Below, piece after piece: positions 1 to 28,457 of a DNA stretch of 64,000 nucleotides; position 1 is the first letter of the stretch, and each line of letters opens with the position of its first letter. The stretch is from Nymphaea colorata. Its lineage: Eukaryota > Streptophyta > Magnoliopsida > Nymphaeales > Nymphaeaceae. The notes below the pieces were generated by a model. The model was not told the origin of the DNA, did not search any database, and saw only the letters and a program-made list of their open reading frames with translations. A program made the position numbers and the translations under genes. Location: NCBI RefSeq assembly GCF_008831285.2, contig NC_045142.1, positions 22,197,354-22,261,353 on the forward strand, read 5' to 3'.

Positions 1-196
1 CTTCAAATTCTATTGCTTGTTATATCAATTATCACGCTTCCTGATTGCAATGTAATTTTTTGTTACTTGTAAACCGAAGCATCTGGCATTTGACCACAGG
101 ATGATGCCTGTATCCAAGTTTCCTTACTAACTCATACTTTCTCTTGTCATAAGTCATGTAAAAATAACTTGCAAATGATATCCTTGTGCTTTGCAG

Positions 197-538
197 AGTG
201 CTTTAAAGCATTACAGATTAGTGTTCGATGCCATTTACACTCCCATAGATACCCGACTCCTGACTGAGGCAAAGGAGGCAGGAGCTATTCCTGTTAGTGG
301 TGTTGAGATGTTCCTTAGACAAGCAAAGGGACAGTTTGAACTCTACACCGATGGCTCTCCTGGTAACTTCAGCTGTCCCTTCCCATTTTCATTCTCACAA
401 TATCTGGCAGCCAGGGAGAATAAATTGTATTCTTCATTGTGTTCTGTTTGTTTCACTTTGTGCCTTACCAATTTTCTCATATTGGCTAATGCAGCACCTG
501 TGGACGTTATGCGAGAAGCTGTCCTAAGCAAAAAGTAG
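197..538 (+). CDS. DHD/SDH copy A, last two exons only (5' part outside window)
   Basis: These are the C-terminal exons of a bifunctional 3-dehydroquinate dehydratase/shikimate dehydrogenase. The exons are 197-362 and 495-538, joined across a GT-AG intron in phase 1, with a TAG stop at 536-538. They encode the end of the SDH domain: the helix reading VFDAIYTP, the SGVEMFLRQAKGQ motif whose Gln is a conserved substrate contact in this family, and an ending in REAVLSKK. Exon lengths (166 and 44 nt) are identical to those of copy B 8.5 kb downstream. The shared EL-Y-T and VLSK endings make A and B sister copies, distinct from C and D. Bases 1-196 are intron. The catalytic residues of both domains lie outside the window, so it cannot be assigned to the shikimate or quinate type. 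The visible exons show no damage. Confidence 0.9.
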   Translation, partial: SALKHYRLVFDAIYTPIDTRLLTEAKEAGAIPVSGVEMFLRQAKGQFELYTDGSPGNFSCPFPFSFSQYLAARENKLYSSLCSVCFTLCLTNFLILANAAPVDVMREAVLSKK

Positions 539-1903
539 AAGAAATGCTCTCAGCCATTTTACTTTTAATTTATGCATATAAATCTCCGGTGTTTGCATTC
601 TTCTTTAGTGAACTTTGTATCGAACTCTTCATCTCTCAGTAATGAGATTTTGGTAGCAATTCTTAATTCTGTTTTTGTGTCAAAACTCCTTAGATGAATT
701 TTCTGTTTTCATGATGGAATCTAGCTTATTAGCATTCTTTCCTGCATTCTGCAGTAAAACCTAGATGTCTCTGACGAATTACAGTAAATTTTGCTGATTC
801 TGCTCTCCGAAGAGATGAGCATCTCAACATTGGGTTTGGCTTTATCATCATTGTTGGACAGTCGGCCTTCCTTTGAGGAATGGTTGAACTTAATATCAAA
901 GAGGGCTTAAAACAAACTATCTGTGATTCTTAGACTTCCTCAAATTCCTTTAAATATTTATTAGAACTGAGATAATCATTCCACAAACATAAAGGTGTAG
1001 CCTATGATTCTTAGTTGTTAACTGCAAAAGTTGAGATGCTCTACGCCTCTGACACAATCACAGGCTAATGAAACCCTTTCCCAAACCTCATTCTGTTACC
1101 CAACTGAACGTATCGCCACCCATGAAGATTGGATTTCTTGAGTAAGGACCATGAAATGTCAGATTTCCTGTGACTTGTGAAGAACTGACTTAGAGAGGGA
1201 AATAGTCTCGTCTTATTGAGTAGAAGCATGAATGCCCCAATAGGTCTCTTAACCAGCTACCATCTAGGTTGAAAAGGAAGCTAGGGATCTAGAAATCGGT
1301 ACAACCAAAAATACCTACATCCCAAAACCATATCCTGCCTATTTACATCCTACCGGAGTGTTTGATAGCATGCAATGTAAAAAATGTTTCATCAAGAAAA
1401 TGGCCCTCAAAGTTCTGAGAGAAAACTTGAAAAAACTATATCACATAGATATAGTAACGAGTTCCGGTACCAGTATAGATATGGAGCACTTCCAAAAAAA
1501 ATTGGGGCCTCGGATACGGCCAACACACATGCACACACATATATAACAAAAAATAATATTTTAAACAAACAAAACAATATAAAAATCCAAAAAATTATCG
1601 GTCGCCGGAAAATCCTGTTAAACAGGTGGAGTTAGACCATACAGAACATGAACAGCTCTTCCGTTTCCGTAAAGGGCTGTCCAATTCCATTATATGTACA
1701 CTATTGTTAAGAAACGACGGACAAAATTAAACTTGGTCAAGTATGACCGAGTCCAAGAAAAGGACAGATTTGGTTATGGGCTGATACAAGTTTAATCATG
1801 TCCAAGCCATGTCCAATTGTGTATCCTTACCGGGTGCCTATGTAGTACCCATGCCGATGTCAATATAGGTACCTCGCCCAAATAAAGGTATCCATCTGAC
1901 ATA

Positions 1904-2124
1904 GTGACCAAGGGGTTGTAGCGCATTGGGCGGCAAGGAGTTTGAGGTTCAAATCTCGTGGTCGCTGTCATGACCTAGTGCGCTCATCCTCTATACCGTA
2001 ATAGGTCTGATGCAAGCTTTATGAACCGTAGGGGCGATGAGCTCATGGGGGAGGTATGAGCTCATGGGGGAAGTAGTTGCCTCTCTTCGGGGTGATAAAG
2101 ATGAACCACTCACCCTAAAAAAAA
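1904..2124 (+). mobile_element. tRNA-derived SINE
   Basis: The 5' part looks like a degenerate tRNA. GTGACCA at 1904 can pair with TGGTCGC at 1959-1965 as an acceptor stem. TAGCGCATTGG near 1919 resembles an A box, and GGTTCAAATC near 1947 is a near-perfect B box. A tRNA-unrelated body of about 150 bp follows, with a 20-bp tandem repeat of the words GAGCTCATGGGGG, ending in an A8 run near 2117-2124. This layout is that of a tRNA-derived SINE. At 62 nt the tRNA-like part has no room for an anticodon arm, so it is not a functional tRNA. Target-site duplications were not resolved. Confidence 0.55.
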
Positions 2125-3774: not shown

Positions 3775-3985
3775 GCATCAACAATGGGTGATGGAGCCAA
3801 GAATTTTTTGTCGCAGCCAAACTATAGTTTCAAAATTCGAACAGGGGCCAAAATATCAATTTTTAAAATTTTTATATATATTAAACTAAACTTTTTATAT
3901 TTACATATAAGTTTTTAAAGTGTTTTTTAAAATCTGAGAGGGGCCAAGGCCCCTACTGCGCCCCCCTTCCCTTAGCCCCTGGGTC
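3775..3985. repeat. Dispersed repeat with GGGGCCAA/GGCCCC ends
   Basis: An AT-rich core, including a stretch of TTTTATATATATTAAAC type, is flanked by AGGGGCCAAAAT on the left and GAGAGGGGCCAAGGCCCC on the right. A related sequence (GAGGGGCGAGC followed by AATTCAAAATTTTTAA) recurs at about 29930-30080, so it is a dispersed family. No ORF and no certain ends. The superfamily cannot be assigned. Confidence 0.4.
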
Positions 3986-4479
3986 TAAATAGTGCCCAAG
4001 TGAAAATCGAAGCTCCCTAGAAACTCGATTTCAAAGCTCAATTTTCTATTAATGCAATTGAAACTTTACTGATGAAAACCGAAGTCTTATTGCTTTTCAG
4101 GGCTGCATTGGTACTTACGTTGGTACTCATGTTGCACGTCTATTCATCTCTCCTTTCCTAATATGAGAGCTGATTGGCCTTTTATCAGCCAACCAGTGAG
4201 GAAACACCCCAAAAATCTTATTTTATAGGATCCAAAAATTAAACAACTTATACTAATTTTATTTTACAGGATCCCAAAATTAAACAACTTATAATAATTT
4301 TAGAAAAAACAATGAGGGTGTCATGCATCTCCTAAACCAATGTGACTTCTTCTATTTCTTCATTGTTCCTACAAATTCCCGGTGACCGGGAGACCAACAA
4401 CCTGCCCACAAAAAAGAGACTTGAAGCCCCCCTCATTCTCCTACCCCCAGAGTCCTAAACTGTGTTGAGGACCAAGGTG

Positions 4480-5455: not shown

Positions 5456-8400
5456 ATGGCTCTGCTATGTGTTCCTCTTGTAGCTTCATCCGTGGAAAAG
5501 ATGCTGCTCGATGCAGACAGGGCCAAGGCAAGTGGTGCTGATGTTGTGGAGTTGAGGTTGGACTGCCTCAAGAATTTTCAGCCTCGCCAGGACTTGGGTG
5601 TGCTGTTGAGAGAGAAGAAGCTGCCAACAATAGTTACATACAGGTAAACAGTCGGAGGATCACATTTTCCTTAGTTGTAACTTCACAGAATTTTTCACTG
5701 CTAGTGGGCTTTGTTTCAGAAGCTGTTTATGCTTTTACTTGCTTCTTAGTCTCTGAAGTATCACAATCATGGCACTCTGAGGTAGCTTCTCATAAAGCAT
5801 AAGCTAAGCTACTATCTGCTGCAACTCTGTTTTGGTTCTAAACAAAGAAAGAAATGGATTAAAGAAGAAATGAACAACAGAAAGCTTGAAAGGAAGTAGG
5901 ACAGATGTGGTGTTTTGATTTTAACACTTAATAGATTGGCATTTCAATGGAGTTCTTGTTCTCATAATGCTGTGCAATATTATGTGAAGTCCTGGCGCTC
6001 TGTAACTAGACTTTTTAAGAAATTTGTTGATTCCAGACCAAAATGGGATGGTGGTCGAACTGAAATTGATGAACAGAAAAGACTGGATGCACTTCGTCTG
6101 GCTGTTGAACTAGGATCTGACTATGTCGATGTGGAGCTTAAGGTAATTTCCTGAACTACTTGTGAAACACTCACCCTTGACTATTAAAAGAAGTTCCCAA
6201 GAAAGTCAGCATGTATTGAGCAACCTACAAAGAACAAATTGAAGAAACTATGAAGAATGATTCAGTTATAACCCTTTGTATTTTGTAGAATGTTAGTGAT
6301 TGAAGGATCGTGGATCAATAGGTTATCTAAGCGATGTAGCACAACGAATATGATCCTTTTGTTGTCTCTCCTCTGTTTTTGCAGGTAGCTGATGAATTCA
6401 TAAAATCAATCTCTGAAAAGAGGCCAGAGATGCTGAAGGTCATTGTATCATCATGTAACTACGAAAATACTCCCTCTGTTGAGATTCTGACCAGCCTCGC
6501 AGCAAAAATTCGATCTGCTGGAGCTGATATAGTTAAGATTGCAACAACTGCCAAAGACATTACAGACGTGTCTCGGGTGTTTCAAGTATGCACTAGTTGC
6601 AAGGTGCTGTACACATGCTTTTTGTGCTACTTCTTATGTGAGATGGAGATGATGATCTATATCACGTCAATCTTCAAATCCTAGCAGATTAGTCTGTTCA
6701 ATGAAACATTGTCAGACAAATTACAGAACTTGTACAGAATTAATTAACTATAAATATAATGAAGTTAAACTTTAAGTGGAGAAATTACATAGGTGATTGT
6801 TGCAGCATTTGACATGAAGTCCTTTTCTCCAAACTCGGTTTTGGTAACAGGATCTATGATAATAGAGCAATAATAACACAAACTTCTCTCCAGGTTCCAA
6901 TCATAGGACTGGTTATGGGCGATAGGGGTGTGATCTCCAGATTGTTTGCCTCAAAGTTTGGAGGATACCTTACTTATGCAGCTCTTGATGGTGGAATAGA
7001 ATCAGCTGTTGGAGAACCAACAATCAAAAAAATGCTCGATGTGTATAACTTTAGGAGGGTGGGAAGAGACACCCAGATATTTGGCCTCATAGGGAATCCT
7101 GTCTACCACAGCAAATCACCATTTGTGTACAACAAAGCTTTCAGCTTTTTGGGGCTTAATGCAGTCTTTGTGCATTTTTTGGTGGATGACCTTCCAAGTT
7201 TCCTCAACGTCTATTCGTCGCCAGATTTTGCTGGATTCAGGTGTAGTTCTTCTCTGATGATAGTGTGGTTATCAAAAGGATCTTTTATTGTTGAAGTGTC
7301 TAAACTCTAAAGTTTTCTGGATATTTAATAAGTTTTCTGGATATTGAAGTGATAAAAATTTACCATTTTTCATGCTCCAGTCCTATTCTTTAATAATTTT
7401 GACACAATTATGAGACAACCTATACTGATGACATCCCTCAAAAAAATAAGTCTTTACATTTTTCCCCTGTTAATTGCATGAATGGGCTGCAGTTGCACAA
7501 TTCCACATAAGGAGATCATGTGCAGATCTTGTGACGAAGTTGATCCTATTGCTAAGGTAATAGGTGGAGAATATTTCTGAGCTCATCTAGTTGCTTTCTG
7601 TCATATACTCACAAAGTGATGAACTCTTTCTCTTCATGTCAAAGTTTGAAGAGTAAATCTGGTTAATAGTTACGTCTGCATTATGTGGGATGTAGGCCAT
7701 GGGGGCTGTAAATACGACCATCAGACGCGATGGGAAACTGATTGGTTGCAACACTGATTACATTGGTGCCATCTCTGCAATTGAAGAGGCACTAAGAGGT
7801 TTCACGTATTAAACTTCCTAATCTGATACTTTAGCTAATGCTAACTCCATTGCCTGATAATTATGTTTGGTGTGATTCAACCCAGCTGCAAATATTCAAG
7901 GTAATATTCCTGGTGGCTCACCTGTTGCTGGGAAACTCCTTGTTATCATGGGAGCTGGAGGAACTGGTAAAGCACTTTCTTATATTGCCAAAGAGAAAGG
8001 AGCCAGGGTGGTCATTGCAAATCGCACTTATGGTACAGTGCATTCTAACCAGAAGTTTTAAGACTTTCAGTGAAAAGATCATCGTTTACCTAATATAGCT
8101 TTGAATGTTTGATCCATGCAATTTAGACAGTCCTAATTTGATGTGCTTATGAGAATACCTCCCCTTTACTCCGTATTCTCAGAGATGCTCATGGTTTCAA
8201 ATCTATTGAGTTTAAATTCATCCTTGTCTGCCCATCTGCAAAATCAAATTTCATGCTGATAATCTGACTATTCTTAAACTTTCCGATAATGAGGCAAATG
8301 TAATCACTGTTGCTTCTCATTGAGTAGAACGAGCTGAAAAGCTCGCACAGGCCATTGGTGGTCAGGCGATCCCTTTGTCTGAACTAGAAGACTTCCATCC

Positions 8401-9044
8401 AGAAGAAGAAATGATCCTTGCAAACACAACATCTGTCGGAATGTACCCAAATACTGGTGTATCACCAATTCCAAAGGTTTGTCTTCTTCTCTAATCCTTG
8501 TTAACAAACCTCTTCAAATTCAGCTGCTTTGAATATTACTCGTTGCAATTACTGATTCTAATTTAGTTTCCTATCATCTTTAACATGAAACCTCTGGTAC
8601 TGAAAACACAATGCGACTCCCGCATCCAAGCTTACCAAAAAATATTGTTCTCTTTCTTCTGCTGATACTACCGGTGCTGGTTTTGCAGCATGCTTTGAAG
8701 CATTACATATTGGTATTTGATGCAATTTATACTCCTAGGGATACCCAACTCTTGATTGATGCAAAGGAAGCAGGAGCTATTATTGCAGATGGTGTTGAGA
8801 TGTTTCTTAGACAGGCAAAGGGACAGATTGAACTCTACACCAACCGCTCTCCTGGTAAATTTCAGAACATCTATCGTTCCTCATTCGCATTCTCACTATT
8901 CTTAGAGTCTAATGGTAACGTACTATGAATTCTGTAATTCTTCATATTATGCTTCAGTTCAGTTGAACTCTTGCTGACAATTTGCTCATGATTGATGCAG
9001 CACCAATGCATATTATGGAAGAAGCTGTGCTAAGCAAGGATTAG
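5456..9044 (+). CDS. DHD/SDH copy B: shikimate-type SDH with altered dehydratase active site
   Basis: Exons 5456-5643, 6037-6142, 6385-6603, 6894-7240, 7493-7556, 7696-7798, 7886-8032, 8328-8476, 8689-8854 and 9001-9044 join in frame to 510 codons. The N-terminal half is type I dehydroquinate dehydratase: the Schiff-base Lys is K149 (IVKIATTA), but the usual catalytic His of VSSHNY is Cys122. The C-terminal half is shikimate dehydrogenase. It has S244-K245-S246, T289 and K293 (SCTIPHK), N327-T328-D329, a glycine-rich GAGGTGK loop, and NADP-type N388-R389-T390. The usual VSG before EMF is ADG. These residues predict 3-dehydroshikimate/shikimate interconversion with NADP(H) and weak or absent dehydratase activity. 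Translation starts at the DHD domain with no transit peptide, suggesting a cytosolic enzyme. The exon 3 donor (AAG|GTGCTG) was chosen by homology. Confidence 0.93.
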
Positions 9045-10490: not shown

Positions 10491-11200
10491 ATGGCGGAGA
10501 AAGCCACTCTTCTCTGTGCTCCACTATCTGCATCTTCTGTGGAGAAGATGTTGCACCAGATCGACGAAGCCGTGGCTGCCGGCGCGGACCTCGTGGAGAT
10601 CAGACTGGACCATCTTCGCAACTTTCAGCCACACCAAGATCTTGAAGTCCTGCTGAAGGGAAGAAAACTCCCAGTTCTCGTTACTTATAGGTACGAGCCA
10701 CCAGTTCTTTCCGGCGAAATCTCCGACCATTTTCCTTCCTCTTTCTTCTTTTCCTTTTCCGGCCGGAGCTGCTTGATAGCATAGCTAAGAATTTTAAGTT
10801 GAGGAGCACTAATTTAAAATTTTTCTTGATATATATCAGTGAGTAAATCGTTTACGAAAATATAAAAGATTTTTGTGAGGTTAGTTCCGACAACTGCTAG
10901 CTCGGCCGCTAGAGCGGCTTGGAGCAATGGATTGGTCGGCAAGGGGACATGCTTGTGTCTGGAGGACAATCATAGCTGGCGTTGTACTCTGGAGGACAAT
11001 CATAGCTGGCGTTGTATTATGCAGTGCACAATTTCTCGTGCACTAGTATAGTATGGTTAATGAATGTGAAGTCAAAATTAAAAAATAAAAATAATATGAA
11101 AAACATTTATTTTTAATAATTACCAAGATATCATTCTCTCCTTCAATCTGCCCCAACCCAAGTATAAAGGTAATAAAATAATAACCATCTGACGACAGAA

Positions 11201-11238
<38 letters not shown>

Positions 11239-14200
11239 CATTTTGATAAAAAACATTGTCTGATCTTTGTATTGGGTAGATTACTTTGAACGTGGTGGCA
11301 GTAACCTTGAGCAATGCCATTAAAAGCTATTATATACTTGTCAGCTTACATCATGATCAAGCGAATATAAATTTCTCTTCTTACGTGTTACGATCGATGG
11401 GGCAGATCGCTTCCAATCTTTTGTTATTATTCTTTATATTTTTGTTTAAATTTTTCCAAATGGATCAATTCACCTACATTCGATGTTTTGCTGAAAAAAA
11501 AATCACCTTAATTATTTATTTTCAGACAAAAAAAACAGTAAATATGAAAAATATGTGGAAACGTTGACATTTTGAAATTAATTTTTTTTTAATGGCCAGG
11601 ACCTCTTCCAAGGCACAGTCCAGAGAGCCTTTTGGGTGTTCGGCTCTGGTTAAGCTCCAATACATAACTTTAATGAGCTTTACAAGTCACAACCGGCTCG
11701 ACTCCATAGACTAAGCTCAATTCATTTAAGCTAGTGAATTAAAACTAAACTAGGCTCAACTTTGCAAGTTGGAACTTCAACTAGAGCCAATAATACTTTT
11801 GCTCGATAGCAAGCTAACAGTCGAGTTGACTCGACTTGCTGAACACCGTCTCGAATAATACATAAACTTACTCGAATTTAATGGAGTCCGGTTTGTGTAA
11901 CTTGAATTCGACTCGTCTACAAATTCGAGTTTTTAATTTAAACTTGAACTCAACCAGTTGAATAAATGAGTCGGGTTCAAGTTGAGTTTAACCGAGTGAG
12001 TTCGAATCGAACCACTGTTAGGGTCGACCGTCAAGAACAACACCAGACACAAAATGGTAGATGATCGAGACTTGATTTAGGCCGGTTTTCAATTTATTGT
12101 GGCAATTTTCTTTTTAAGACGAGAATCAAACAATAGTTACAACAAATAAATATTAGTCTTCATCTTTTTTTTTTTTTTTGCATTTATATTTTCAAAAAGG
12201 TTTCGGCCTTAAACACTCTTAAATTTGTTAATTTTTACTTGATTATTGAGTTTTCAATCTAATTTGTTCTAATTTCAGGCCTAAATGGGAAGGTGGTAAT
12301 TACGAGGGCAATGAACATGAAAGACTGAAGGCACTTCGCTTAGCTATGGATTTAGGTGTTGACTACGTGGATGTGGAGCTCCAGGTTATCTTTTTTCTTG
12401 ATTTAAATTTTTGGATTTTTTTTCTTGGAATTTCAAGGTCAGGTTGGCAGACTTCTAGCTGTTTAGATAAGAACTGTTTTATGGTGTTTCGAGGTGAGTA
12501 CCCTGCTATGCACTATTTGCATATTGATGTTTCCTTTTGCAGCGCAAAAGGTTGACATGTGGTATTTTTGAGCATGGATAATGCCATTGCCGTACACATG
12601 AACGTAAGGGAAGTGAAGTCGCTTTTTAGATTTTAACATGACTTAATGACTTCTAAACAGCCGAAATTAGCTTGTTAATCTTCCAAAAACCCTGTTATTT
12701 ATTCCGTTTTTTCTTTTCATTTTGTTACTTGTACATCAAGATTCAGATAATTAATCTTTTTTTCTCTACCTCCACTTGTAAGATCTAATACTTCAAAATT
12801 TTGTGGAGGAAATTGTAATAAAAATTTGTGAATTTTGTATGGATATGGTGCTTTTGCTGTTTTTGTAATAAAAATTTGTCATTGTTGAGGTCCGGACTAA
12901 TAATTTTCTGGAATACTAGAAATTATTACACACACAGCAGCGGCTGCCCTTGGTGGAGGAGCAGCAATGGAGTGTCCTTACACACACAGCTCAGGCCAGC
13001 AAAGCGATTTGCTCGGCTAGCTGTTTGTGTAAGGAAGAGCATTTTCTCTCTCTTGTCGTGCAATTGGATATTTAAGCATCCACTATTAAAAAGGACCATA
13101 AAGCATCTTTAAAACCACTTAACTACCGTTGTACCATAATTTAGTGATTGGTTTTTAAGAGAGAGAGAGAGAGAGAGAGAGATTTCTACCCATAACTTCA
13201 AACTTCAAAAAGAGGTTGCCTTTTCTGATTTTTCGAGTAAGGGGCTCCTTTCTTATAGAGAATGTCGAAGAAGGAGTCGAAGTGGATACCTTGAGAAATG
13301 AAAAGTTCAGATCCTTATTGGACAGTTTCTATAGAAAGTGTATCTTATACTCAAAAAATTTGCAAAGAATGGTCCCTTTTCTAAAGTTATAGGCAAAACG
13401 TAAGCCTGGAAACGGAAATTTCCCAATCAGCTGACAAGGTGTTTTCATATTTTCAAATTTTACTCCTTACTTTTCATTCAACTTATTTTACTTTTTTTAT
13501 TATGCTTGCGGGACAACGGTCTACCAGACCAGTTTATATGTTATGGCCCCTACCACAGGACGGTGTGTTAGGGACTGGAAAAGACCAAAATGTCTTTACC
13601 GCTAAAATGAAAACCCCCTCCCTGATAAGGGCAAAAGTGAAATGGAGGAAACATTCTTTCATAAATGACAAAAAATACGCTTTGGATACACCATGGGAAC
13701 ATAGCTTCCCGTGTTAGCGACATAATGCCCTAAGCTTCTAACTGCTAAAAACTAGTCCTAAAAGTGAGGCATGATATCTGAAGATACAAAAATGTAGGGA
13801 CCTTTTCTAGAAATTATGAGAAAGGTAAGAAAGTTATTTCATTAAAGGCTTGCTTCTTTTGGACTAAATTGACAGAGAATTGCAAAGTTGAAAAAAAAAA
13901 AGTTAAATTTTCCCACCACTAAATGAAACAAACATCAAAAGAAGAGGTTGAGAAAAAATTGAGCCAGAGGAGGACAATTTTTCTCACCCACTTTAGTGCA
14001 AAGAAAATGGATTCCCTTCTTAACTGATGGAAGAAATGGGCCTTAAATGATTGGTTTTGTACATTTGGTCATTGAAGTAGAAACCAAGCACGACTCAGGT
14101 TAGCCCTGGGATTTGATAAGTCACATTTCATTCATAGTTGGATTGACTTCAAAATAGTTTTTTCTTTGATTAGATTTAGTTTAAGTCTGAACTAAGATCA

Positions 14201-14986
14201 GCTCAAAACGTAATTTTTACATATAAAATGTATGATTTCTGCTATTTTGTCCAATTTGTTTTTGGGCACTTTTTCTTTGGATTCAGTAATATCACAAACT
14301 GCGGGAATTGAATTTGTTCTGGATTATCGGATCTTTTTGAATTCAGATTAGTTGTATTTCATGTTCAGTAAGATCCAGTGTGACATGTGTAACCGTCATA
14401 TGCATTGTATATTAAATCAAAATCCCATGGTTAACTCTAACCTTTTGTGGATTGGTAGGCTGCCAATGACTTTATTAGCTCCATATCTGGAAAGAAGCCT
14501 GAGAACTTCAAGATTATTGTTTCATCACACAACTATCAAAGTACTCCTTCTGTTGAGGAACTCACAGATCTAGCTGCAAAACTACATGCAACTGGAGCGG
14601 ACATAGTGAAGATTGCCACAACAGCTGTAGATATTACAGATGTAGCTCGAGTTTTTCGAGTAATCGTAAACTGCCAGGTAACTTGAATATCTTATTTTGG
14701 TCTTTATTTCAGAAACTGCAACAATCTTCATCCCTAAAACGAAGAAAGTCTTTTCAGATTGCAAGTAAATAAGAAAGTTTTATTTAAATGTTAATCCATT
14801 TATATTCATGGAGAGAGGCTGATGTGACCCAAATTGGCATCATAGCAGCCAGTATATGTCACATGGGTGTGGGTATGAGTACAGATATGGGTGCGGACAC
14901 AAGTGCATAACAGCTTCAAAATTTGGGTGCATGGATACAGCCATGTGTATAGGTGTGTGTGTGTTTGTGTGTCTGCCTATACATAC

Positions 14987-15042
<56 letters not shown>

Positions 15043-18000
15043 AACACATATTCATTATTTATAATAAGAAAACATAGATTACTAAACAAAAGATATCAAA
15101 ATTGTACAAAAAGGTTCAAAGGATGAGTCTGCCATGTCCTGTATCCACACCTCCAGTCATGATAATAGGGGTGAAGTATCCATGTGACATAGTTAAGGGT
15201 CCTTGCATCGGCTCCTGCATCATTGCAGCGAATAATTGTCCTGTATAGGCTAATAGGTACCAATATTGATAACACTATGCTTGCATTATCAGATCATGCC
15301 TTGAAAATTTTTCAACTAACAAACATGACGTACTGTTCTTTTCCAGGTTCCAGTTATTGGATGGGTCATGGGAGAGAGGGGACTGATTTCTAGATTGTTG
15401 AGCCCCAAATATGGTGGGTACCTTACTTATGGGGCCCTTGAATCTAGCAAGCAATCTGCGCCTTGGGAACCCACATTAAGAGATTTGCTAGATTTGTACA
15501 ACATAAGGCAGGTTACGCCTGACACTAAAGTCTTTGGTGTTATTGGAAAGCCTATTGGACATAGTAAAGGGCCAACTATGTACAATGCAACATTCAAGCA
15601 TGTTGGATATAATGGCATCTATGTGCATCTATTGGTGGATGACCTTGCTCGCTTCCTTGACACATATGCTTCACCAGACTTTCCTGCTTTCAGGTACAGC
15701 TTTCTGATGATATATTGGAATATTCTTCTCGCCTGAATCTTTTGATTTTTAGGTGGAAGACAGTGTGGCCATTGCAGAACATGACAATTAGTAGACTTGC
15801 CAAATGAATTCTCTGATAACTCTGTCTAGTTCTCGAGCTCCCTATAGTGTAGGGGGCTAGTTGTTAAACTTAAAAGTGCTAGACGAAGCCTAAGCAGTGA
15901 GCTAAACTTAGAGCCTAGCCAGGACTTATCATATTAAGCGATATAAAAGAAAAATTATCCAACAAAATGCAATATTACTTTTTTAAATTAACAGCAAAAC
16001 TGAAACATTTCTCAAACCTATAATTTTCAATTTATAGCAACAAAATATTAAAATGCACAATAGCAGTCCACTCACATTCAACATTTCGTAACATGACAAT
16101 AAGCAAAATTAAGTGTTCAAAAGAGCAAATGTAACGAAGTTTAACAATTGAAATTTAAATGTCAGATAGCATAAAAAGAGAGAGTCCATAATTTAAAACA
16201 CTTCTTTGGAATGTCACAGAGCATGCAAAATTTTTAATTTCCTAATGCAAACTATTAAATCTCTGTCTAATTTCTAGACTTTAAAAGCCTAAAGGCCCTA
16301 AACTAAAGCCTAAAATTACTAATCTTTGTTTCCTGAAAAAGTAAGAAGTGAAAAAACAAATCCGCAACATCCGTGTTAGCACTGCCTCTCATAAAAGATA
16401 AAACTGTTTTCCATTGTAATTCTAATACAACAAAAAGTAAAATATATATATATATAGATAATGCTTTTTCCTTTTTACTAATGTGTGTATGTGTAAAGCA
16501 GTTAAAAACCTAAAACAACATACATACACGTATACATCCTTAAGCAAATGTACTTATAATTTGAGCACTTGCAATGTAAAAAAGAATGAGGAACAGAAAA
16601 TCAACATTAAAGCCAAAGAAGAAAAAAAAAAGGTATGCAGTTGACAAAAGGAAAAGAAGAAAAAGAAAAAAAAATCTGCTTCAAAGAGCAGTGGAAAGGA
16701 AAAAGAAAAGAACTCTAGGCTGTTGAGTGAAAGGTGCCCTAGGTGACAGCCTAGTCCTTCCAAATGGCAAGTCAAATAAGAACAGCCAGACTAAGCAACC
16801 AGTCAAGCCTATGAAACTAGGCAAGCCTGGGCGCATGCCTGGTGCATTTTTTAACAACATAGATTGCAGGAAATGCTAATAAGTAATAAGCAAATTGCCC
16901 AAATGAATTCTATGAGAACTGCGTTTAGTTTTCTAACATTAAAAGTTTATTGGTGATTCAGTGGACATAAAAGCACCACGCAGGAGGTTTATGTTGTTTT
17001 TTCTTTTTCTCAGAATTTGGTATTGGTGGTAATGTTGTTCTAAGCACATTTTGAGTGGAGCACACCATCCTAAACATGGTTTCCTTTGTTTCTTTTTTCA
17101 GTTCTCTCTAAATCAAAATGATGATTGTCATTCTTTATGTAACCGATCTTTTTCTTTTTCTTTTTTACTTACTAACCTGATTGTAATTTGTTATGCAGTT
17201 GTGGTATCCCTCACAAGGAGGCTGCAGTAGTATGCTGTGATGAAGTTGACCCAATTGCAAGGGTACTACTGCAATACATAGAATCAATTTTAGTCTATAT
17301 ACCTAAGAAACAGAAGACACTATTGACCTTATTATGTTTCTCTTTCAGTGGCCATATTATGCTGCAATTCCCTGCAGCCTTTTTCTAAGTTGCATAACCG
17401 CACAACTGCCTTTTCTTTTCTTTTTCTTTTTTTTTTCCTCGGAATTCCATTAGAGCATTGGAGCTGTGAATACTATTGTCAGCCAGCCATTTGGTCAAAA
17501 GTTGATGGGATATAACACTGACTACTATGCTGCCATATCTGCCATTGAAGATGCACTTAGAGGTCTGTATCAGGATTATCATCTAACATCTGCAAAAGGA
17601 TGACATGTTTTCTTGATTGATGTAATCACTCTACACAACAGGTACGACTACTAGCAGCAATACAGCCAATTCACCTCTTGAAGGTAAACTGTTCGTTGTC
17701 ATTGGTGCTGGTGGGGCTGGGAAAGCACTTGCTTATGGTGCAAAAGTAAAAGGAGCAAGAGTTGTCATAGCCAATAGGACCTTTGGTAAATTTTTCTCTT
17801 TTACACCTCAAGGCTTCCCATATGTGTGCATTATAAGACAAATCTGAACCACTTGAAGAGTATTCAAGCTTTTTCTGTGAATATGTGGTAAATGTCTTGA
17901 ACAAAATTTAGGACTCTTAGAAACTATAGTTTAAAGTTCTTGGATTTTTATTTATTTATTTATTTTTGTGTGTGTTGGGGGGGGGGGGGGGGGGGGGTGG

Positions 18001-18784
18001 GGGGTGGTTGTTCTCGATTTCTTTGAGACTAGAACAATCACTACCATAATCTTCTCTGTTTGATGCAAGAACGAGCTAAAGACCTTGCTGAGTTAGTTGG
18101 TGGTGCTGCTTTAACTTATGCTGAACTGGCGAACTTCCACCCAGAGAAAGGCATGATCCTTGCAAATGCTACTTCTGTTGGAATGCAGCCACAGATAGAG
18201 GAGACACCAATACCAAAGGTTTGCTATATCTAATGCCTAATGGATATATATGCGGCATTGGAACTTTATTTTTTAGTGTACATGTAGATAGCTTGTGCCC
18301 GACTTCTTTTTATCCAACTGCTTCAATTTGGTTGTAAGTTACGTCTATGAACTATAATTATATGAATTATGATGCTAATGCCTATGAAGGTCCATTCTTG
18401 GAATCATGGATTTGTCCTTCTCTTTGACTTCCAACAACTGAAGCCTGACACCTATATATTTGGATGCATTGCAGCATGCTTTGAGATATTATGCTATTGT
18501 TTTTGATGCCGTCTACACCCCCAAAGTTACAAGACTAATGCAAGAAGCAGAGGCCTCAGGAGCTATCCCAGTTAGTGGTGTGGAAATGTTCATTAGACAG
18601 GCGAAGGGACAATTTCAACACTTCACTGGCCTACCTGGTAATGGGTGGTGTCCATTTTCAGCTTCTACTTTTTTATTGTTGTTCATCTGTTTTTTGGGCC
18701 TAAATCATAAAGTTGATGAATTTCAAATGTGTTGCTGCAGCACCTGAGGAAGTAATGCGTGAGGCAGTTCTAAATAAGATCTAG
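10491..18784 (+). CDS. DHD/SDH copy C: quinate-dehydrogenase-like, NADP-type
   Basis: Exons 10491-10690, 12279-12384, 14459-14677, 15347-15693, 17199-17262, 17454-17562, 17642-17785, 18070-18218, 18475-18637 and 18741-18784 give 514 codons in frame. Both dehydratase catalytic residues are present: H126 (SSHNY) and K153 (IVKIATTA). In the SDH half, Lys297 (IPHK) and N333-T334-D335 are kept. The two residues that line the substrate C1 side are Gly: S248-K249-G250 and S291-C292-G293. That is the pattern I recall for angiosperm quinate dehydrogenases (Ser338 and Thr381 of the Arabidopsis enzyme). The cofactor motif N393-R394-T395 is NADP-type. Inferred role: dehydroquinate/quinate interconversion plus dehydratase. 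The start is the only in-frame ATG before the domain, so there is no transit peptide. Introns 1, 2 and 4 (1.5-2.1 kb) are swollen by repeats; intron 7 holds a long G tract. Confidence 0.93.
10958..11016 (+). repeat. 30-bp tandem duplication in intron 1 of copy C
   Basis: The unit beginning TCTGGAGGACAATC and ending CTGGCGTTGTA occurs twice head-to-tail (10958-10987 and 10988-11016) without a mismatch over the 29 bases compared. It looks like a recent local duplication within intron 1. Confidence 0.85.
11202..11237. repeat. (TA)n microsatellite, copy C intron 1
   Basis: About 18 uninterrupted TA units within intron 1 of copy C. Confidence 0.95.
11640..12010. repeat. CTCGA/TCGAG-rich dispersed repeat in intron 1 of copy C
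   Basis: It has dense GACTCGACT, CTCAACT and GAGTCGGGTTC words, similar in vocabulary to 3360-3540 and 9510-9850. Non-coding, with ends not resolved. It contributes to the 1.6-kb size of this intron. Confidence 0.4.
13159..13182. repeat. (GA)n microsatellite, copy C intron 2
   Basis: Twelve uninterrupted GA units in intron 2 of copy C. Confidence 0.95.
14979..15040. repeat. Compound (ACAT)n(AT)n microsatellite, copy C intron 3
   Basis: Five or so ACAT units run directly into twenty AT units in intron 3 of copy C. Short ORFs on both strands here are translations of the repeat. Confidence 0.95.
17977..18008 (+). repeat. Long poly-G tract in intron 7 of copy C
   Basis: A run of 21 consecutive G is followed by TGGGGGGTGG. 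It lies in the 284-bp intron 7, about 60 bp before the exon 8 acceptor. The tract is on the transcribed sense strand, so it would appear in the pre-mRNA and could form a G-quadruplex. Confidence 0.9.
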
Positions 18785-19578: not shown

Positions 19579-19612
<34 letters not shown>

Positions 19613-20911: not shown

Positions 20912-23900
20912 CTAAATTTTAGTCAGGATATTGCGCATCAGATTCTCAGGTGCTGCAATGTATAAAATGAGACAGATCAAACTTTTGAAAATAAGCATTC
21001 AAATCCACAATTTTAAGTAAAAAAACTAAACCTATACCAGGTAAACCAGTGAAGTGTTTGAACTGTCCCCTTGCCTGTCTAACGAACATCTCCATGCCAC
21101 TAACTGGAACAGCTCCTGATTCCTCTGCTTCACGCAGTAATCTGGTGTTTCTGGGAGTATATACCGCATCAAAAACAAGAGCATAGTATCTCAGAGCATG
21201 CTGGCAATGCACCCATACATACATGTCAGTTTCCACTTTTCCAAGGAACAAAACTATGCTTAAGCACGGACAGAATGGAATATCATCAAGTATTGGAATG
21301 TACCTTATGATATATAAGGTATATATCATAACTATAGGGAAGCAAATACAGTATGCCCTGAAACAAGTTTCAGGGTTCTGATAATACAGCATCTTGTACA
21401 ACATATGATGCACCTTGTTTTTTTATCTTACAATATGATGCAGGATCTTCATGTATATTATGTTATATCTTCAAAACACAAAAAGATGACAAAGAAACTT
21501 GAATTTACATAAATTCCTTAAAGATGAATATCTATTGTCTCAAGAGCTATTCTTAAAGTGAAAAAAGTAAAACTTAAAGCTGATGTCATGCACGAAAATT
21601 GGGCATTTATGAAAGAAAAGAAAAGGTTGATGTTTTACACGATTTAAGTTGTTCATACTTCATAGTTTCAACTTTCGAGGAGTAAGTTTACACACTAAAG
21701 ATTATTGATTTCATGTCCATTTAAGGATTAAGAGTAATTTTAGTTGTTAATTTTAGTTATTTCTGATGAAGATGTGTATGCTGCTTGTATTATATACATT
21801 TTATTATTGTACATTCAATGTTTTTAAGCAATTTTCCATTTGAATGTGAAATTGTAGTTTAATCTTGAAGTTAATGGAATTTTCTAATCTAATATGTCTT
21901 TTCCAGAACTCTTTGTGGATTTTTTTTTATTTATACATGTTTCTTTAACAAAATTTGCAAGTTTTACAGTCTATGTCATAGTACATACCTTATCTTGGAC
22001 TCGACCAATATGTGTTATGATACACATTTTACGACACTGAGTATCATAGTCCATAACAATGTGTCATGCGCTTAAGAATTCAGAATGGTTCTTGAAAGGT
22101 TCATTATAGCTATGACCAAGACATGGACATGCATGGAAAAAAGAATATTCATATATTACAGTGTGCCTACTGATCTATTGAACATGCCAAACCTTAGGTA
22201 TTGGCGTCTCCTGTATATTTGGCTGCATTCCAACTGGAGTAGCATTTGCAAGGATCATGCCCTCTTCTGGATGAAAATCCTCCAGTTCAGCCATGGTTAT
22301 GTTATCAGCACCAACTGAACTGGCAAAATTTTTTGCTCGATCTCATAAAAGAAAAAAAATTACGATCAGTCTAGTGAAAGACAGATAGGAAAGAAACAAA
22401 AGGAACAGCCAGCAAATAACCAATATGGAGCAAAAACCAACACCCTAGACATCAAGCTCTCGGTGGCCTCTTGAGTGCCTTGAGTTGACCTGCCTAGCCA
22501 ATATGTGGAACTAGATATTGTGGCAAAATTGATTTGTCAAGAAATCAACTTATACTACAAACAACAAATCATATGCTTTTCAACTAATTCAGCTTGTAAA
22601 TCTGTTAAATGCATGTAGGCAAACTTTTAGTATGTTCCACCAGTTAGGCCAAAAAAGATCTTTTACCAGAAATTAGATCGGTTATGACAACTCTTGCTCC
22701 TTTTACTTTGGCACCATAAGCAAGTGCTTTACCAGCCCCTCCAGCTCCAATAACAACAAGTAGTTTACCCTCAAGAGGTGAGTTGACTATGTTGCACTTA
22801 GCAGTTGAACCTGCCATCCAGAATGGAATATTCAACATAAACCAACAAAAATGGCTATACTTTCCTAGGTGATATTCTTTTCTTTATAAACGACAGTTTA
22901 TAATCAACATGAAAACCTCTAAGTCCATCTTCAATGGCAGATATGGCAGCATAATAATCTGTATTGTATCCGATCAACTTTCCGTCTCTCGGTCGCCTGA
23001 CAATTGTGTTCACAGCTCCAATGCACTGGAAATTCCAAAAGTATACATATCAAACTGATTAGAAGTAATTGGTTGGGATATCATCATCTGCTATCAGATC
23101 CAGATCCGATTAGTTGGATCCTCTAAGGAAATTCAAATTAGATTAGCAAACTGAACTTGAATTTTTAACTTTTTTATGTTTTTCTTACTGAACGTAATGG
23201 ATATTCAATTCTAACAGATATCCAAGTCCAGTTTCAAGTGAAAATATAGCCTCATATTTGGCATATTCAGATTAAATTCAAGATGAATTGGTAATCTTTG
23301 ACAAGTCAGATGTGGTAATTTCTGCATCCTATCTGAGCTCGATCTGTTCACATTCCTAATGCTGATGCAGTTATCAAACTTCACAAAGGACAGCTTGCAA
23401 CATGTTGCTTTAATGCTATTGGTTTCTTAACAAAATTTGGTTGACAAGACTATTGCCAATAGTACCTTTGCAACTGGTTCAACTTCATCACAGCATAGAA
23501 CTGCAGCTTCTTTATGAGGGATGCCGCAACTGCATGTTATACAAGAAGGACACATTAGTACCTAAGAGAAGAAAAAGATCAGCCTCATGAGACTCCACAA
23601 ACTTTGAGTTGAACGAGAAAATAAGTGATTTTTTGTTTTACAGAAATTCGTGGAAAAAATTGTGAATGCAGGGTTTGACGTTTTGTACAGTCAGTTTGAG
23701 GTTTTTTTTCTACATTAAATCTATTTTAGGAATTTTTCTTTTCTTTTCTTTCATTTTCTGAAAACAATAAGAAACCATTTAATTGATGTGTTAGGTGTTT
23801 CTTGTTATACGTGACCTTTTTTTAGATTGGTTTCCCATTAGTGGCCCTTGCCGGATACTAAAAATACTTTTGGAAAAATATATAACATTAGAAAAGGAAA

Positions 23901-25503
23901 ACCCTTAAGCAATGTTATCAAAGGCGTAGCATATCACGTATCGGTCGGGCCGACCTATACGCCGTATTGTTACGTATCGTAACGTATCGTAACGTATCGT
24001 AAAATTAATTTTTTAATTTTTAAAAAATATTAGAAATTCATAAAAATAGAAAAAATCATAAAAAATCCAAAAAAATCAGAAAAAACAAGCAAAAATCAGA
24101 AAAAATAAAGAAAAATGTATTTAAAGGAACATTCATGTAAATGAAGTATGAAGTATGAACAACACATTCCAAAATAAGAAATTAGACATTCAAAATAACA
24201 TAATAAGCAGCCGAAGATAATTCGATTACATCACAATTCATAAGTTCAAAAGTCAAAACATATAGTGTTTAGACTATATGTAGTGTTTAGAAACAAGAAA
24301 AGAGAGAGAGAGGAGCGTAGGTTTTAAAAGAACACGCAAAAAACGGCCCCTTTTTAATTTTACTCTTGTATCCTACGATACGGGGGTGTATCGCACGTGT
24401 CGTGCGATACGGCCCCCGTATCTCACAATACGGGCGATACGCGTATGATACGCACGCGTATCGCGTATCGAACGCGTATCATATAGGTTTCTTCGACCTA
24501 TACGATACGTATCGATACAGATAACATTGCCCTTAAGAATCTTTTCAAATGGCAGTGTTTTGTAAAGATATCAAAGAAAGATAGAAGATCCAAAGAGTTA
24601 ACCAAATTGGCAGGCACTTCTATTGTTGTTTGTAAAAGGAGGAACTTAAATTGTTGCAAATTTAGGGAGGAAAAAATTACTCCATGTGCTACCAGAGAAT
24701 CATACCTGAAAGCTGGGAAGTCTGGTGCAGCAAATGTATTGAGAAAGACTGCGAGGTCATCCACCAACAGGTGCACGTATATTCCATTATATCCAACATG
24801 CTTGAATGTTGTATTGTACACAATCGGCCCTTTACTATGTCCTATTGGATTCCCAATAACACCGAATACCTGAGTATCAGGCCCAACCCATCTTATATTG
24901 TACAAATCCAGTAAATCTCTTAACGTGGGTTCCCAAGGAGCAGATTGTTTGTTAGCTTCAAGAATGCCATAAGTAAAGTATCCTCCAAACTTGGGGCAAA
25001 GCAATCGAGAAATTAGTCCCTTCTCTCCCATGACATATCCAATAACTGGAATCTGAAGAACAAGCTGCATGATGCTGTTAATATGAAAAATTTTAATGCA
25101 TTACATCAACATGCAAGCTTCATGAGCATATGTCAAGAAAGATTCTTTTAAAAAGCTAAAATTACTGACATATAAGAGCTCCCCATTACCAATAAAAAAC
25201 ATGATTATTTCCAGTTTATACTCATGATGTATTTCCGAAGATCAAGATATTTGTGAGTTTATCCTCGTCATGTTCGTGCTATAATATTCAGAGTCTTCTT
25301 TCCTTTTCAATCTTTGGTTCATGTATTAGCTCTCATGCGCTGTTTCATATAGAGATGTCCATTGATGCATCCTGCAGTTGTCTTTTAATCTACAACCCAG
25401 AAAATGAGTACCTATCTTATGTTTTTCTAAAGAAAGAAAAGTCATGATAATCGAATGTTTCATGAGTTAATTTCTCTTTATCCTGTCCTCTTCATCCATC
25501 CAT

Positions 25504-25536
<33 letters not shown>

Positions 25537-28457
25537 GAGAGAGTCAGAGAGTGAGAGAGAAAGAGATGTCCGTCCACCATTCTATGAAGTAGACCCTCTC
25601 ACAAGGTTTTTCTTTGGAAAGCTAAATCTCCTTTGCCTACAAATACATTTATTGTTGAAGAATTATCAACGATTCATTAATAACGGAGAAGTTATATCAT
25701 CTCTATTTTCCTACTAGGCCATTGGCACATATCTGATCAAATTGCCAAGAAAGTGAAGTGCATATACATGCACATGCACATGCAAATACACAAATATATA
25801 TGGGCAATTGTAGAACTGAATAATCTTCACTTGGTCCCTCTTCATGACCTTAACGGTTTAACTGAGTCCATAAACAAGCCAAAATTTTATGCTTGAATGA
25901 AACTAGGATAATTTTGTAAAGAAAGAAACGCTGCCAGTCAATTTCTAAATCACGATCTTTTCCAATTTAACTTGACTGTGCAAAACTTACTATAAAATGC
26001 CAGAACATGAAAATGTATATTAGCAATTCCAATTTAATTTGAAGCTAGACTCTTATGTGTGGAGGCAAGGGTTATATGTTTGTATTATAGTTCACAAAAA
26101 ATTCAAACCAGGCAATCCACCATCACATTTCATCAAGTATTCAGACCAGTGAAACAAGTACTTACTTGACAATGCATCATCGCTTGAAATATGTGTGCTA
26201 CATCTTTAATGTCTATAGCTGTTGTAGCAATTTTCACTATATCTGCTCCAGTTGCAACTAACCTTGCAATTAGAACCCTGAGGTCCTCAAATGAAGGAGT
26301 ACTTTGGTAGTTATGTGATGAAACAATGACCTTCAAGTTCTCAGGCTTCTTTCCAGATACAGAACTTATGAAGTCATTAGCAGCCTGAAAAAAAAAATAC
26401 AGAGACAGCTAATTGAGAATATCAATTCCTTAACAGAATATCTCACCAAGATATATTCCAACAAGTTAAAGAGAAAGAAATATGCAAAAGAAGCACTTCT
26501 TTACTGATATTTGGTATCCAAGTGCAACATCCCCCAATCCGTGTACATCCGACCATGAGTTTGCACCAGAGAACTAACTGTATAGTTAGGTCAATATTTG
26601 TTCAGGGTCGAACATAATTGCATTGGATCAGATAATAACCTACATGTTCATGTTCCTTGATATGCCAACTGGGAAAACAGAAAGGGATCTTTCTGAGTGC
26701 TGACCTATAAGAAGCCATAATGCCAGCACCAATGGTGCAATCATCATTTCTAAATTCTTCCCTATACCGTATGAAAGCAATAGAAAACTAAGTAGGCCTT
26801 CTGAACATAACCCCTATATGAGGCACTCAGTAAAGATTTCCAGTGCCAAATTTTTGCCACAGCGAGCAATTCATATTATAAAGATGCCACAACACCAAAG
26901 TTTTTCCAATATCCATTTTTTCTTCTTCTACAGGTGAATTTAATTTGTCTAACTAATCAGCGTATCTGATTAAAGAAGTGAAGAGAATAGGATTCCAGTT
27001 CCTTAGACATCTGAGCTAAACAAACAAAGGCAGGTGGAACTTGAAGGAAAAGAATTCCAGGTCTTGCAGTTCAATGAATCAGTCTATAATGTTCTATACC
27101 ACAGGCATTTTGAACTATCTTGCAAGTATAACCACGTTAGATGCAGCCAATAAGAACTAGCAAAAATACCACAATATTTTCAAAGGATCAACAGAAATAA
27201 AAAACTGCAATATTGTCAAGATACTCCAATACTTTTCCTGAGATTACCAAAAAATCTGTTTCTTGATCACTTTGAGGAATGATATTTTTGTTCGTTTGAT
27301 TTGTACTTTTAACATTTCTTCTACGTTACACTTTTGCAGGAAAATTACTTGGAAAGCCTACTTCATAGCTTTTCTTATTTAAGTTTGCCAGACTTATAAC
27401 TTGTTTCATTGTTCTTTATATTTTTCTCAAGCCTTAAACTTCAAAAAATTTCCCAATAACTTTTCAGATAAACCTTCCTGGGACATTACTAAGAGTAATG
27501 TCAGCATGTTTGGTTCCGATATGCCCTAACCAGAGTATCTGGAACATATTAATGCAGCCAAAGAGGGGGAGAAAGAACCTCGAGCTCAACATCCACGTAG
27601 TCAGCACCGAAGTTCATGGCTAAACGAAGGGTCTCCAATCTTTCATATTCACTGCCTTCAAAATGACCGCCTTCCCACTTAGGCCTGGAGTCAACACAAA
27701 ATACGTTCCAAAATTTAGGAGAGAAACCATCCTAAAAAGCTTGAACCATTGCAGAGGAGACAAAAAAAGGAAAAAACATAGCAGCAATAACTCCCGTTCT
27801 ATTTATGCAACTATTCATCTTATTAATTTTGCGTACTTCTTCTGTAAAGCCATAGCCTACTCTTAAAGAGATAGCTACACTGTGTTCCTTATAAAGATGG
27901 TTAAAGAATAAAGGAATGCTAGCCATTCTCCGAAACTGAGTTAATCTCCACACGTATAAAAGGTTAGCATGGTCTATAAATTTTGACAGTAGATTTAAAT
28001 GGAATGTGCCATTTTCTATTTGAAAGCCGTCCTAGACATGGATATTCATGCAATCATTTCTATCTGACCGGTGATGGAGTTCTTGGAAAAATCAAGTTCT
28101 TGGTGAAAGATACATCAGCAATCAAACTACCCATCACAATAAGAGCTCAAATGAATGAAGCAATGTAGGTTTTTCGGGAGAGGACCACTGGCTTATTGCT
28201 ACGGTTTACGTAAACAAAATGGTATATGATTTTCAGAAGAGGTTCAGTGACTCATACCTGTATGTAACAAGGACAGGAAGCTTTTTATCTTTTAGTAGGA
28301 TTTCCAAATCTTGGTGTGGCTGGAAGTTTTCAAGAAGGTCCAGTCTGATCTCCACGAGGTCTGCACCGCCAGCCTTGGCCTTATCGATCTGATATAGCGT
28401 CTGCTCCACAGAAGACGCATGCAATGGCACACATAGAAGAGTAGCGTTCCGTGCCAT
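20912..28457 (-). CDS. DHD/SDH copy D: quinate-dehydrogenase-like with non-NADP cofactor motif
   Basis: On the minus strand, exons 28258-28457, 27579-27684, 26166-26384, 24706-25052, 23466-23529, 22917-23025, 22667-22810, 22193-22341, 21038-21200 and 20912-20952 join to 513 codons. The first nine exons match copy C length for length. The dehydratase residues H126 and K153 are intact. In the SDH half, S248-K249-G250 and S291-C292-G293 match copy C (quinate type), and K297 and N333-T334-D335 are retained. At the end of the second Rossmann strand, copy C has NRT while D has D393-L394-I395. An Asp there normally binds the adenine ribose and favours NAD over NADP. The later NATSVGM motif is NATPVGM (P432). 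Inferred role: NAD-linked quinate dehydrogenase with a dehydratase domain, probably cytosolic because no transit peptide is seen. A hAT-type element sits in intron 4. Confidence 0.93.
23902..24537. mobile_element. Non-autonomous hAT-type element (MITE) in intron 4 of copy D
   Basis: The element spans 23910-24529 (620 bp). It is flanked by a perfect 8-bp target duplication CCCTTAAG (23902-23909 and 24530-24537). Terminal inverted repeats begin CAATGTTATC on the left and end GATAACATTG on the right. Inside the ends are clustered subterminal ACGTATCGTA / TATCGTAACG words in both orientations, and the centre is A-rich and non-coding. An 8-bp target duplication, short inverted ends starting with CA, and subterminal repeats are diagnostic of the hAT superfamily. 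No transposase is encoded. Confidence 0.88.
25505..25534. repeat. (CA)n microsatellite, copy D intron 3
   Basis: About fifteen CA units followed by a GA-rich stretch, in intron 3 of copy D. Confidence 0.95.

What the first reader, a model, noticed from the sequence alone, without database searches (positions are those of the whole stretch)
1..28457. Cluster of four DHD/SDH genes split into two functional classes
Copies A, B and C are in tandem and D is inverted. The last exons show A and B as one pair (EL-Y-T, VLSK) and C and D as another (FTGLPAPE). B is shikimate-type (SKS, CTIPHK) while C and D are quinate-type (SKG, CGIPHK). The locus appears to have duplicated a primary-metabolism enzyme and turned part of the array toward quinate metabolism, placing substrate supply (dehydratase/SDH) and a quinate branch side by side.
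Basis: partly seen in the sequence, partly recalled or inferred. Interest (0 to 1): 0.85.

Follow-up and report, generated by a model that had tools for sequence, protein, structure and literature searches.

The report
Water lily shikimate/quinate dehydrogenase gene array
A water lily chromosome carries four neighbouring copies of a shikimate-pathway enzyme gene, two of which look as if they became quinate-making enzymes on their own, probably separately from other flowering plants, after a genome duplication.

Summary
The array is real. B, C and D are intact 10-exon DHQ dehydratase/shikimate dehydrogenase (DQD/SDH) genes; A starts upstream of the window and was completed from the genome, which is Nymphaea colorata (two published primers match the expected chromosomes). 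Six such genes were found: A-D on C5, and E and F in a collinear block on C10.

C and D carry both quinate substitutions (S338G, T381G). C keeps the NADP motif; D has an NAD-like one. But there are not simply two classes: A is SKG, unlike B, and B has lost the dehydratase histidine (H214C), so it is a doubtful dehydratase source. F, the nearest relative of C/D, still has T381 and an intact dehydratase site.

Trees, Ks (about 0.9 between blocks, 0.6-0.7 within C5) and synteny place T381G after the Nymphaealean genome duplication and before the C/D split. This suggests an independent origin of quinate-type enzymes, perhaps with dehydratase loss by a lid change (G303W/Q304E). Activities are predicted, not measured, and no QDH sequence from another plant could be compared. 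Independent plant QDH origins and SDH/QDH clusters (grape) are already known: a new variant of a known kind.

The parts
197..538 (+). Gene A, last two exons (197-362, 495-538) of a DQD/SDH; the other eight lie upstream at G000:C5:22193496-22197318. Complete A: G338, T381, T407A, NRS; H214, K241, R279 and G303/Q304 kept, P302D.
5456..9044 (+). Gene B, 10 exons, 510 aa: SKS (S338 codon 7116-7118), CTIPHK (T381 codon 7497-7499), NRT; dehydratase His214 replaced by Cys (codon 6454-6456), Q304E (7014-7016), P302V.
10491..18784 (+). Gene C, 10 exons, 514 aa: predicted quinate dehydrogenase with NADP-type motif NRT. G338 codon 15569-15571; G381 codon 17203-17205; lid W303-E304 codons 15464-15469.
20912..28457 (-). 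Gene D, 10 exons, 513 aa, inverted: predicted quinate dehydrogenase with NAD-like motif DLI in place of NRT (codons 22679-22671). G338 codon 24830-24828; G381 codon 23525-23523; lid W303-E304 codons 24935-24930.
45644..46500 (+). Collinear neighbour on C5 and C10 (matching C10:22020555-22021427); resembles a 60S ribosomal protein L18a-like gene (name recalled, not tested). Part of the synteny evidence; end approximate.

Best explanation
This is a lineage-specific DQD/SDH array in Nymphaea colorata. An SDH-like gene (ancestor of A/B/E) and a second DQD/SDH (ancestor of C/D/F), presumably neighbours, existed before the Nymphaealean genome duplication. That duplication put one pair on C5 and one on C10. 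On C5 both genes duplicated again (A/B and C/D, with D inverted). Between the genome duplication and the C/D split the C/D ancestor gained T381G on top of an earlier S338G, making room for the C1 hydroxyl of quinate, together with G303W/Q304E in the dehydratase lid loop. C and D are therefore predicted to interconvert 3-dehydroquinate and quinate with weak or no dehydratase activity: C with NADP(H), D with NAD(H). Shown: sequence, gene structure, trees, Ks, synteny, residues. Inferred: substrate, cofactor, dehydratase loss, compartment, and an origin independent of the eudicot QDH groups.
For: Intact models under purifying selection (C-D Ka/Ks 0.20). T381G and G303W each need one change on the protein tree, on the C+D branch; F, A, B, E, Arabidopsis and the three outgroups have T381. 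(C,D) 100/99 and (F,(C,D)) 99/99 in the protein tree; holding F with Arabidopsis, or F with A/B/E, is rejected (AU p 0.005 and 0.010). DNA trees give ((C,D),F) and ((A,B),E). Ks between blocks: A-E 0.89, B-E 0.84, C-F 0.97, D-F 0.92; within C5: A-B 0.62, C-D 0.69. The published N. colorata WGD peak is Ks about 0.9 (PMC7015852, passages). Two further gene pairs are collinear in the same orientation. Functional meaning of T381G, S338G and NRT/DID: PMC7752791 (passages and two sections) and PMC4892741 (passages and one section). G303-Q304 is PGQ in 9 of 9 prokaryote loci L030-L038 (seven of them Methanobrevibacter) and SGQ in L029. N. nouchali is annotated with digalloyl-quinic and galloyl-shikimic acids (PMC12717157, passages).
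Against: No activity, expression or localisation data. C and D keep H214, K241 and R279; EcQDHa/b and tea CsDQD/SDHb change H214 and R279, so dehydratase loss in C/D is uncertain. D's motif is DLI, not the documented DID or D-I/L-D. No plant sequence other than Arabidopsis could be compared, so the relation to QDH groups II and V is inferred from dating and synteny, not from a joint tree. The position of Arabidopsis relative to A/B/E and C/D/F is unresolved. Ks is a simple NG86 estimate, not the published method.
Confidence: 0.72

Rival explanations
1. C and D belong to the ancient seed-plant QDH clade (groups II/V), which predates angiosperms, and F reverted G381 to threonine.
For: C/D share G338 and G381 with groups II/V; C's NRT resembles group V and D's Asp483 resembles group II. 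[quoted passage not shown]
Against: F would need a two-base G381T reversion together with a canonical G303/Q304 lid and H214. C-F and D-F Ks match the genome duplication, and the blocks are collinear. C and D are sisters here, not members of two old groups.
Confidence: 0.17
2. C and D still mainly handle shikimate, or are mixed shikimate/quinate enzymes, despite G381, as reported for two Brassica enzymes.
For: PMC7752791 notes two Brassica enzymes combining SDH and QDH activity (section 19). C/D keep most canonical catalytic residues of both domains.
Against: C/D have both T381G and S338G; the Eucalyptus enzyme with both lacked shikimate formation and showed low shikimate oxidation (PMC7752791, passages).
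Confidence: 0.2
3. One reading: B (and A) is a normal bifunctional dehydratase/SDH feeding a quinate branch in C/D.
For: B has S338, T381, N406, T407, NRT; A keeps the listed dehydratase residues apart from P302D.
Against: B has H214C and Q304E. A is G338 and T407A. In-frame stops lie 2 codons upstream of the start codons of A and B, so no contiguous plastid transit peptide is seen.
Confidence: 0.1

Closest known systems
Grapevine chr14 cluster VvSDH2-VvSDH3-VvSDH4 (PMC4892741)
   Same: Linked DQD/SDH paralogues (34 kb) with a QDH-group gene beside SDH-type, gallate-forming genes.
   Different: In grape a further gene, VvSDH1 of group I, sits on another chromosome. In N. colorata all six genes found lie in the two homeologous arrays, and the T381G change postdates the array.
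Eucalyptus EcQDHa/b (EcDQD/SDH4a/b) and Populus Poptr2/3, NAD-type QDH, group II
   Same: S338G and T381G; D also has Asp at 483.
   Different: EcQDHa/b have H214F and R279Q; C/D keep both residues and instead have G303W/Q304E. D's motif is DLI, not DID; C is NRT.
Poptr4/EgQDH2-type QDH (group V); EgQDH2 is predicted NADP-dependent and plastidic
   Same: C: S338G, T381G with an NADP-type motif.
   Different: C has no contiguous transit peptide and is sister to NAD-like D rather than shown to belong to a separate old clade.
Gly381 or QDH activity outside the main QDH clade: FvSDH3 (PMC4892741) and two Brassica enzymes (PMC7752791)
   Same: The quinate-type change arising within SDH-type stock.
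   Different: Here it is an early-diverging angiosperm; the change is bracketed by a genome duplication and a later gene duplication, and S338G came first.

Membership tests
Plant bifunctional DQD/SDH | DHquinase_I fused to Shikimate_dh_N and a dehydrogenase C-terminus in one intact gene | tested here: met
   B, C, D: (D has no PF01488 hit at E up to 0.001; B's SDH_C is below Pfam's cutoff); models. A, E, F were not scanned with Pfam.
Plant quinate dehydrogenase (groups II/V) | T381G and S338G | tested here: met
   C and D only; A, E, F are G338/T381 and B is S338/T381
Plant quinate dehydrogenase (groups II/V) | Dehydratase residues H214 and R279 replaced, as in EcQDHa/b and CsDQD/SDHb | tested here: not met
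   C and D keep H214, K241, R279; they have G303W/Q304E instead
Plant quinate dehydrogenase (groups II/V) | Clusters with group II or V sequences | not testable with these tools
   No other plant sequences held; Ks, synteny and sister gene F argue against
NAD-type QDH (group II) | Asp-containing motif at 483-485 | tested here: inconclusive
   D is DLI (Asp483 but no Asp485); C is NRT
Plant quinate dehydrogenase (groups II/V) | Measured quinate dehydrogenase activity | not testable with these tools
   Needs recombinant protein
Canonical bifunctional SDH (group I) | S338, T381, NRT plus H214, K241, R279 | tested here: not met
   B fails H214; A, C, D, E and F fail S338; none of the six meets all
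Gallate-forming SDH (groups III/IV) | Substitution at N406, T407 or T422 | tested here: inconclusive
   A and E have T407A; B, C, D, F have none. Known cases use T407N, or T407Q with N406S/T422V; group I enzymes other than Arabidopsis have Cys407, so a change at 407 alone is not proof

The most novel reading that the evidence does not exclude
An early-diverging angiosperm re-evolved quinate dehydrogenase from its shikimate dehydrogenase stock after its own genome duplication. A permissive S338G came before T381G, dehydratase was lost through a lid-loop substitution not reported in the texts read here, and the new gene pair split by cofactor (C NADP, D NAD) as the two old QDH clades had done. 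The sister-type genes A and E (G338, T407A) may make gallate, so one array could supply the gallic, quinic and shikimic units of water-lily galloyl esters.
Probability: 0.3. Interest if true: 0.75.

Novelty: new variant of a known kind. Interest (0 to 1): 0.52.

Why it matters
If right, the quinate branch arose again in water lilies, in a dated order of substitutions that can be replayed in the laboratory using F as the unconverted relative. [quoted passage not shown] Nymphaeales are noted as an exception outside the core eudicots that makes hydrolysable tannins (PMC10587339, passages), so this family is where their gallate source would be sought.

Tried and rejected
Rejected: FTGLPAPE as a quinate marker (Arabidopsis SDH has FTGLPAP). 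Rejected: A as an SKS enzyme like B (complete A is SKG). Rejected: C/D as recent copies of the neighbouring A/B type (the nine A/B/E versus C/D/F pairs have Ks 1.06-1.84, older than the genome duplication). Considered: A as sister to E rather than B. The protein tree prefers it weakly (73/79) and does not reject A+B (p 0.10); DNA trees on all positions and on third positions reject A+E (AU p 0.0008 and 0.003), so B's S338 looks like a return to serine, and its T407 is either a return or reflects separate A407 gains in A and E. Exon 1 of A and B is unusually similar (92% DNA, pS 0.24), perhaps by gene conversion; not pursued.

Led nowhere: rooting with prokaryote outgroups (Arabidopsis unresolved: all six Nymphaea genes together p 0.42, Arabidopsis with A/B/E p 0.17, Arabidopsis with C/D/F in the best tree at 70/59). 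The prokaryote scan gave 10 loci, of which one, L029, is a full-length fusion. Guo 2014, Carrington 2018 and Light 2011 are not held; Gritsunov 2018 was seen only as a reference title and as cited in PMC7752791. Two paper searches aimed at water-lily DQD/SDH or independent QDH origins listed 25 of 565 and 12 of 693 papers; no listed title or abstract start was on a Nymphaea DQD/SDH or quinate dehydrogenase. The unlisted papers were not seen.
Full report
What is there. Four DQD/SDH genes lie at the left of the window. B (5456-9044 +), C (10491-18784 +) and D (28457-20912 -) each have ten exons with GT-AG introns and no internal stop, encoding 510, 514 and 513 aa. Only the last two exons of A are inside the window (197-362, 495-538). 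Pfam gives DHquinase_I and Shikimate_dh_N for B, C and D; SDH_C is above its cutoff for C and D and below it for B; PF01488 is found in B and C but not in D at E up to 0.001.

Where it comes from. The window is G000:C5:22197354-22261353 of a 407.8 Mb assembly in 783 contigs. Forward primers of two of the 13 N. colorata markers tabled in PMC9601493 (passages), Ny-5.2 and Ny-10.1, match exactly once each, on C5 and C10, which are their published chromosomes. The genome is therefore Nymphaea colorata or something very close. The published assembly is 409 Mb in 804 scaffolds on 14 chromosomes (PMC7015852, passages), so the held version differs slightly.

The family. A search of the genome with the dehydratase half of C gave 24 matches, all at two loci: genes A-D on C5 and two more genes, E and F, on C10. 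A search with the Arabidopsis SDH half at E up to 10 gave 39 matches; 36 are at the same two loci and the other 3 have E of 0.34 or worse. A, E and F were completed from fetched sequence (A at C5:22193496-22197891, E at C10:21994029-21998342, F at C10:22001272-22005453), each with ten exons and no internal stop. The tool scores only its best candidates, and an unassembled further copy cannot be excluded.

Residues (Arabidopsis numbering). B: S338, T381, T407, NRT; H214C, P302V, Q304E. A and E: G338, T381, T407A; H214, K241, R279, G303, Q304 kept, P302D (A has NRS, E has NRT). F: G338, T381, T407, NRT; all listed dehydratase residues canonical; the closest to Arabidopsis (70.0%, against 58.2-63.5% for the other five). 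C: G338, G381, NRT; G303W, Q304E. D: as C, but NRT becomes DLI. C and D keep H214, K241 and R279. Numbering was anchored on T381 of 2gpt; the other published positions then fell on the expected letters. Positions 300 and 304 as dehydratase ligands are recalled from bacterial enzymes. PMC4114755 (passages) says that residues of the beta8-alpha8 loop of type I DHQases, which has open and closed forms, are highly conserved. G303-Q304 is PGQ in 9 of 9 loci L030-L038 (seven of them Methanobrevibacter, so not independent) and SGQ in L029.

What the literature says of these residues. T381G is reported sufficient to gain QDH activity and S338G to enhance it; NRT goes with NADP and DID with NAD; EcQDHa/b carry H214F and R279Q, offered there as the reason for dehydratase loss (PMC7752791, passages). 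Gly381 occurs in groups II and V and in FvSDH3 of group I; Gly338 in groups II and V (one member has Arg); Asp in the NRT motif only in group II (PMC4892741, section 20). Tea CsDQD/SDHb has Tyr214, Gln279, Gly338 and D-I/L-D, while CsDQD/SDHc has Gln214 and remains an active SDH (PMC6797610, passages), so loss of H214 in an SDH-type protein such as B has a precedent.

History. Protein tree: (C,D) 100/99, (F,(C,D)) 99/99, A/B/E 86/90, Arabidopsis unresolved; without the outgroups A/B/E is 100/100. Holding F with Arabidopsis, or F with A/B/E, is rejected (AU p 0.005 and 0.010). DNA trees on all and on third codon positions give ((A,B),E) and ((C,D),F), all starred; on first and second positions A+B is 82/84. 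The protein tree instead joins A with E at 73/79. NG86 Ks: A-E 0.89, B-E 0.84, C-F 0.97, D-F 0.92; A-B 0.62, C-D 0.69; the nine A/B/E versus C/D/F pairs 1.06-1.84. Third-position differences show the same steps: AB 0.333, CD 0.341; AE 0.404, BE 0.396, CF 0.409, DF 0.411. The published N. colorata genome-duplication peak is Ks about 0.9 (PMC7015852, passages). Apart from the DQD/SDH genes, a comparison of open frames in 144 kb of C5 and 120 kb of C10 found two more gene pairs in the same order and orientation: an L18a-like gene and a large J-domain-like gene (names recalled, the C5 protein of the second is). One further hit joined an open frame at the right end of the window to the C10 J-domain-like gene, out of order. 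The simplest history is an old pair, a genome duplication, then local duplication of both genes on C5.

Where the quinate change falls. On the protein tree position 381 needs one change, on the C+D branch, as does 303; 304 needs two and 338 three. [quoted passage not shown] This last step is inference: no group II or V sequence could be compared.

Mechanism. Losing the side chains at 338 and 381 should enlarge the pocket around C1 so that the extra hydroxyl of quinate fits; K385, D423, N406, T407, T422, Y550, Q578 and Q582 are unchanged in C and D. A dehydratase that consumed 3-dehydroquinate would compete with the quinate site (argued in PMC7752791). The W-E lid is a plausible way of reducing it, differing from the H214/R279 route, but this is untested; Q304E also occurs in B (GAA in B, C and D). 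D's Asp483 predicts NAD preference, C's NRT predicts NADP. All fifteen gene pairs show purifying selection (Ka/Ks 0.09-0.31 over whole genes and the two halves), and the dehydratase half of C/D is no less constrained than the SDH half (0.18 and 0.22), so the fold is kept. In-frame stops lie 2-18 codons upstream of each of the six start codons, so none has a contiguous transit peptide; an upstream exon is not excluded. Which gene serves the plastid pathway is therefore open; F is the best candidate.

Chemistry fits. N. nouchali is annotated by mass spectrometry with gallic acid, ellagitannins, digalloyl-quinic acid and galloyl-shikimic acid (PMC12717157, passages), and hydrolysable tannins are noted as exceptional in Nuphar of the Nymphaeales, outside the core eudicots (PMC10587339, passages). 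A and E carry T407A, at one of the positions changed in gallate-forming enzymes (PMC7752791, section 29), though with a different letter; that link is speculative.

Known or new. SDH/QDH clusters (grape chr14, 34 kb) and Gly381 or QDH activity outside the main QDH clade (FvSDH3, Brassica) are known, and the title of Gritsunov 2018 speaks of multiple evolutionary trajectories of plant QDHs (seen in a reference list). What seems new, as far as the listings show, is the water-lily case with its dated order of substitutions, the lid change and the C/D cofactor split.

Noticed in passing
G000:C10:21994029-22005453: Second, homeologous two-gene DQD/SDH array (E, F); A, E and F have G338 with T381, a combination not described for groups I-V in the texts read.
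   Followed up: yes
window 5456-5643 and G000:C5:22193496-22193683: Exon 1 of A and B is 92% identical in DNA (pS 0.24) while their other exons are 74-82%; possible recent gene conversion.
   Followed up: partly
Start codons of A-F: No contiguous transit peptide in any of the six genes, and no gene with the full canonical SDH residue set found, so the plastid enzyme is unidentified.
   Followed up: partly
window 37993-39843 and 41503-43521: Two long single-exon PPR genes, the first with E, E+ and DYW deaminase domains, the second with an E motif only.
   Followed up: no
window 51414-52694, 57480-58655, 62974-63999: Three related open frames (35-43% alike over about 340 aa); the first has a zinc-ribbon match below Pfam's cutoff, and the last (- strand, running to the window end) has a distant match to the J-domain-like gene on C10.
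   Followed up: no
window 33949-34896: Two imperfect direct copies, roughly 470-490 bases apart, seen in the six-frame self comparison.
   Followed up: no
L029: A Calditrichia MAG has a fused dehydratase/SDH (32% to the plant proteins) directly after a frame that looks like 3-dehydroquinate synthase (name recalled, not tested).
   Followed up: no
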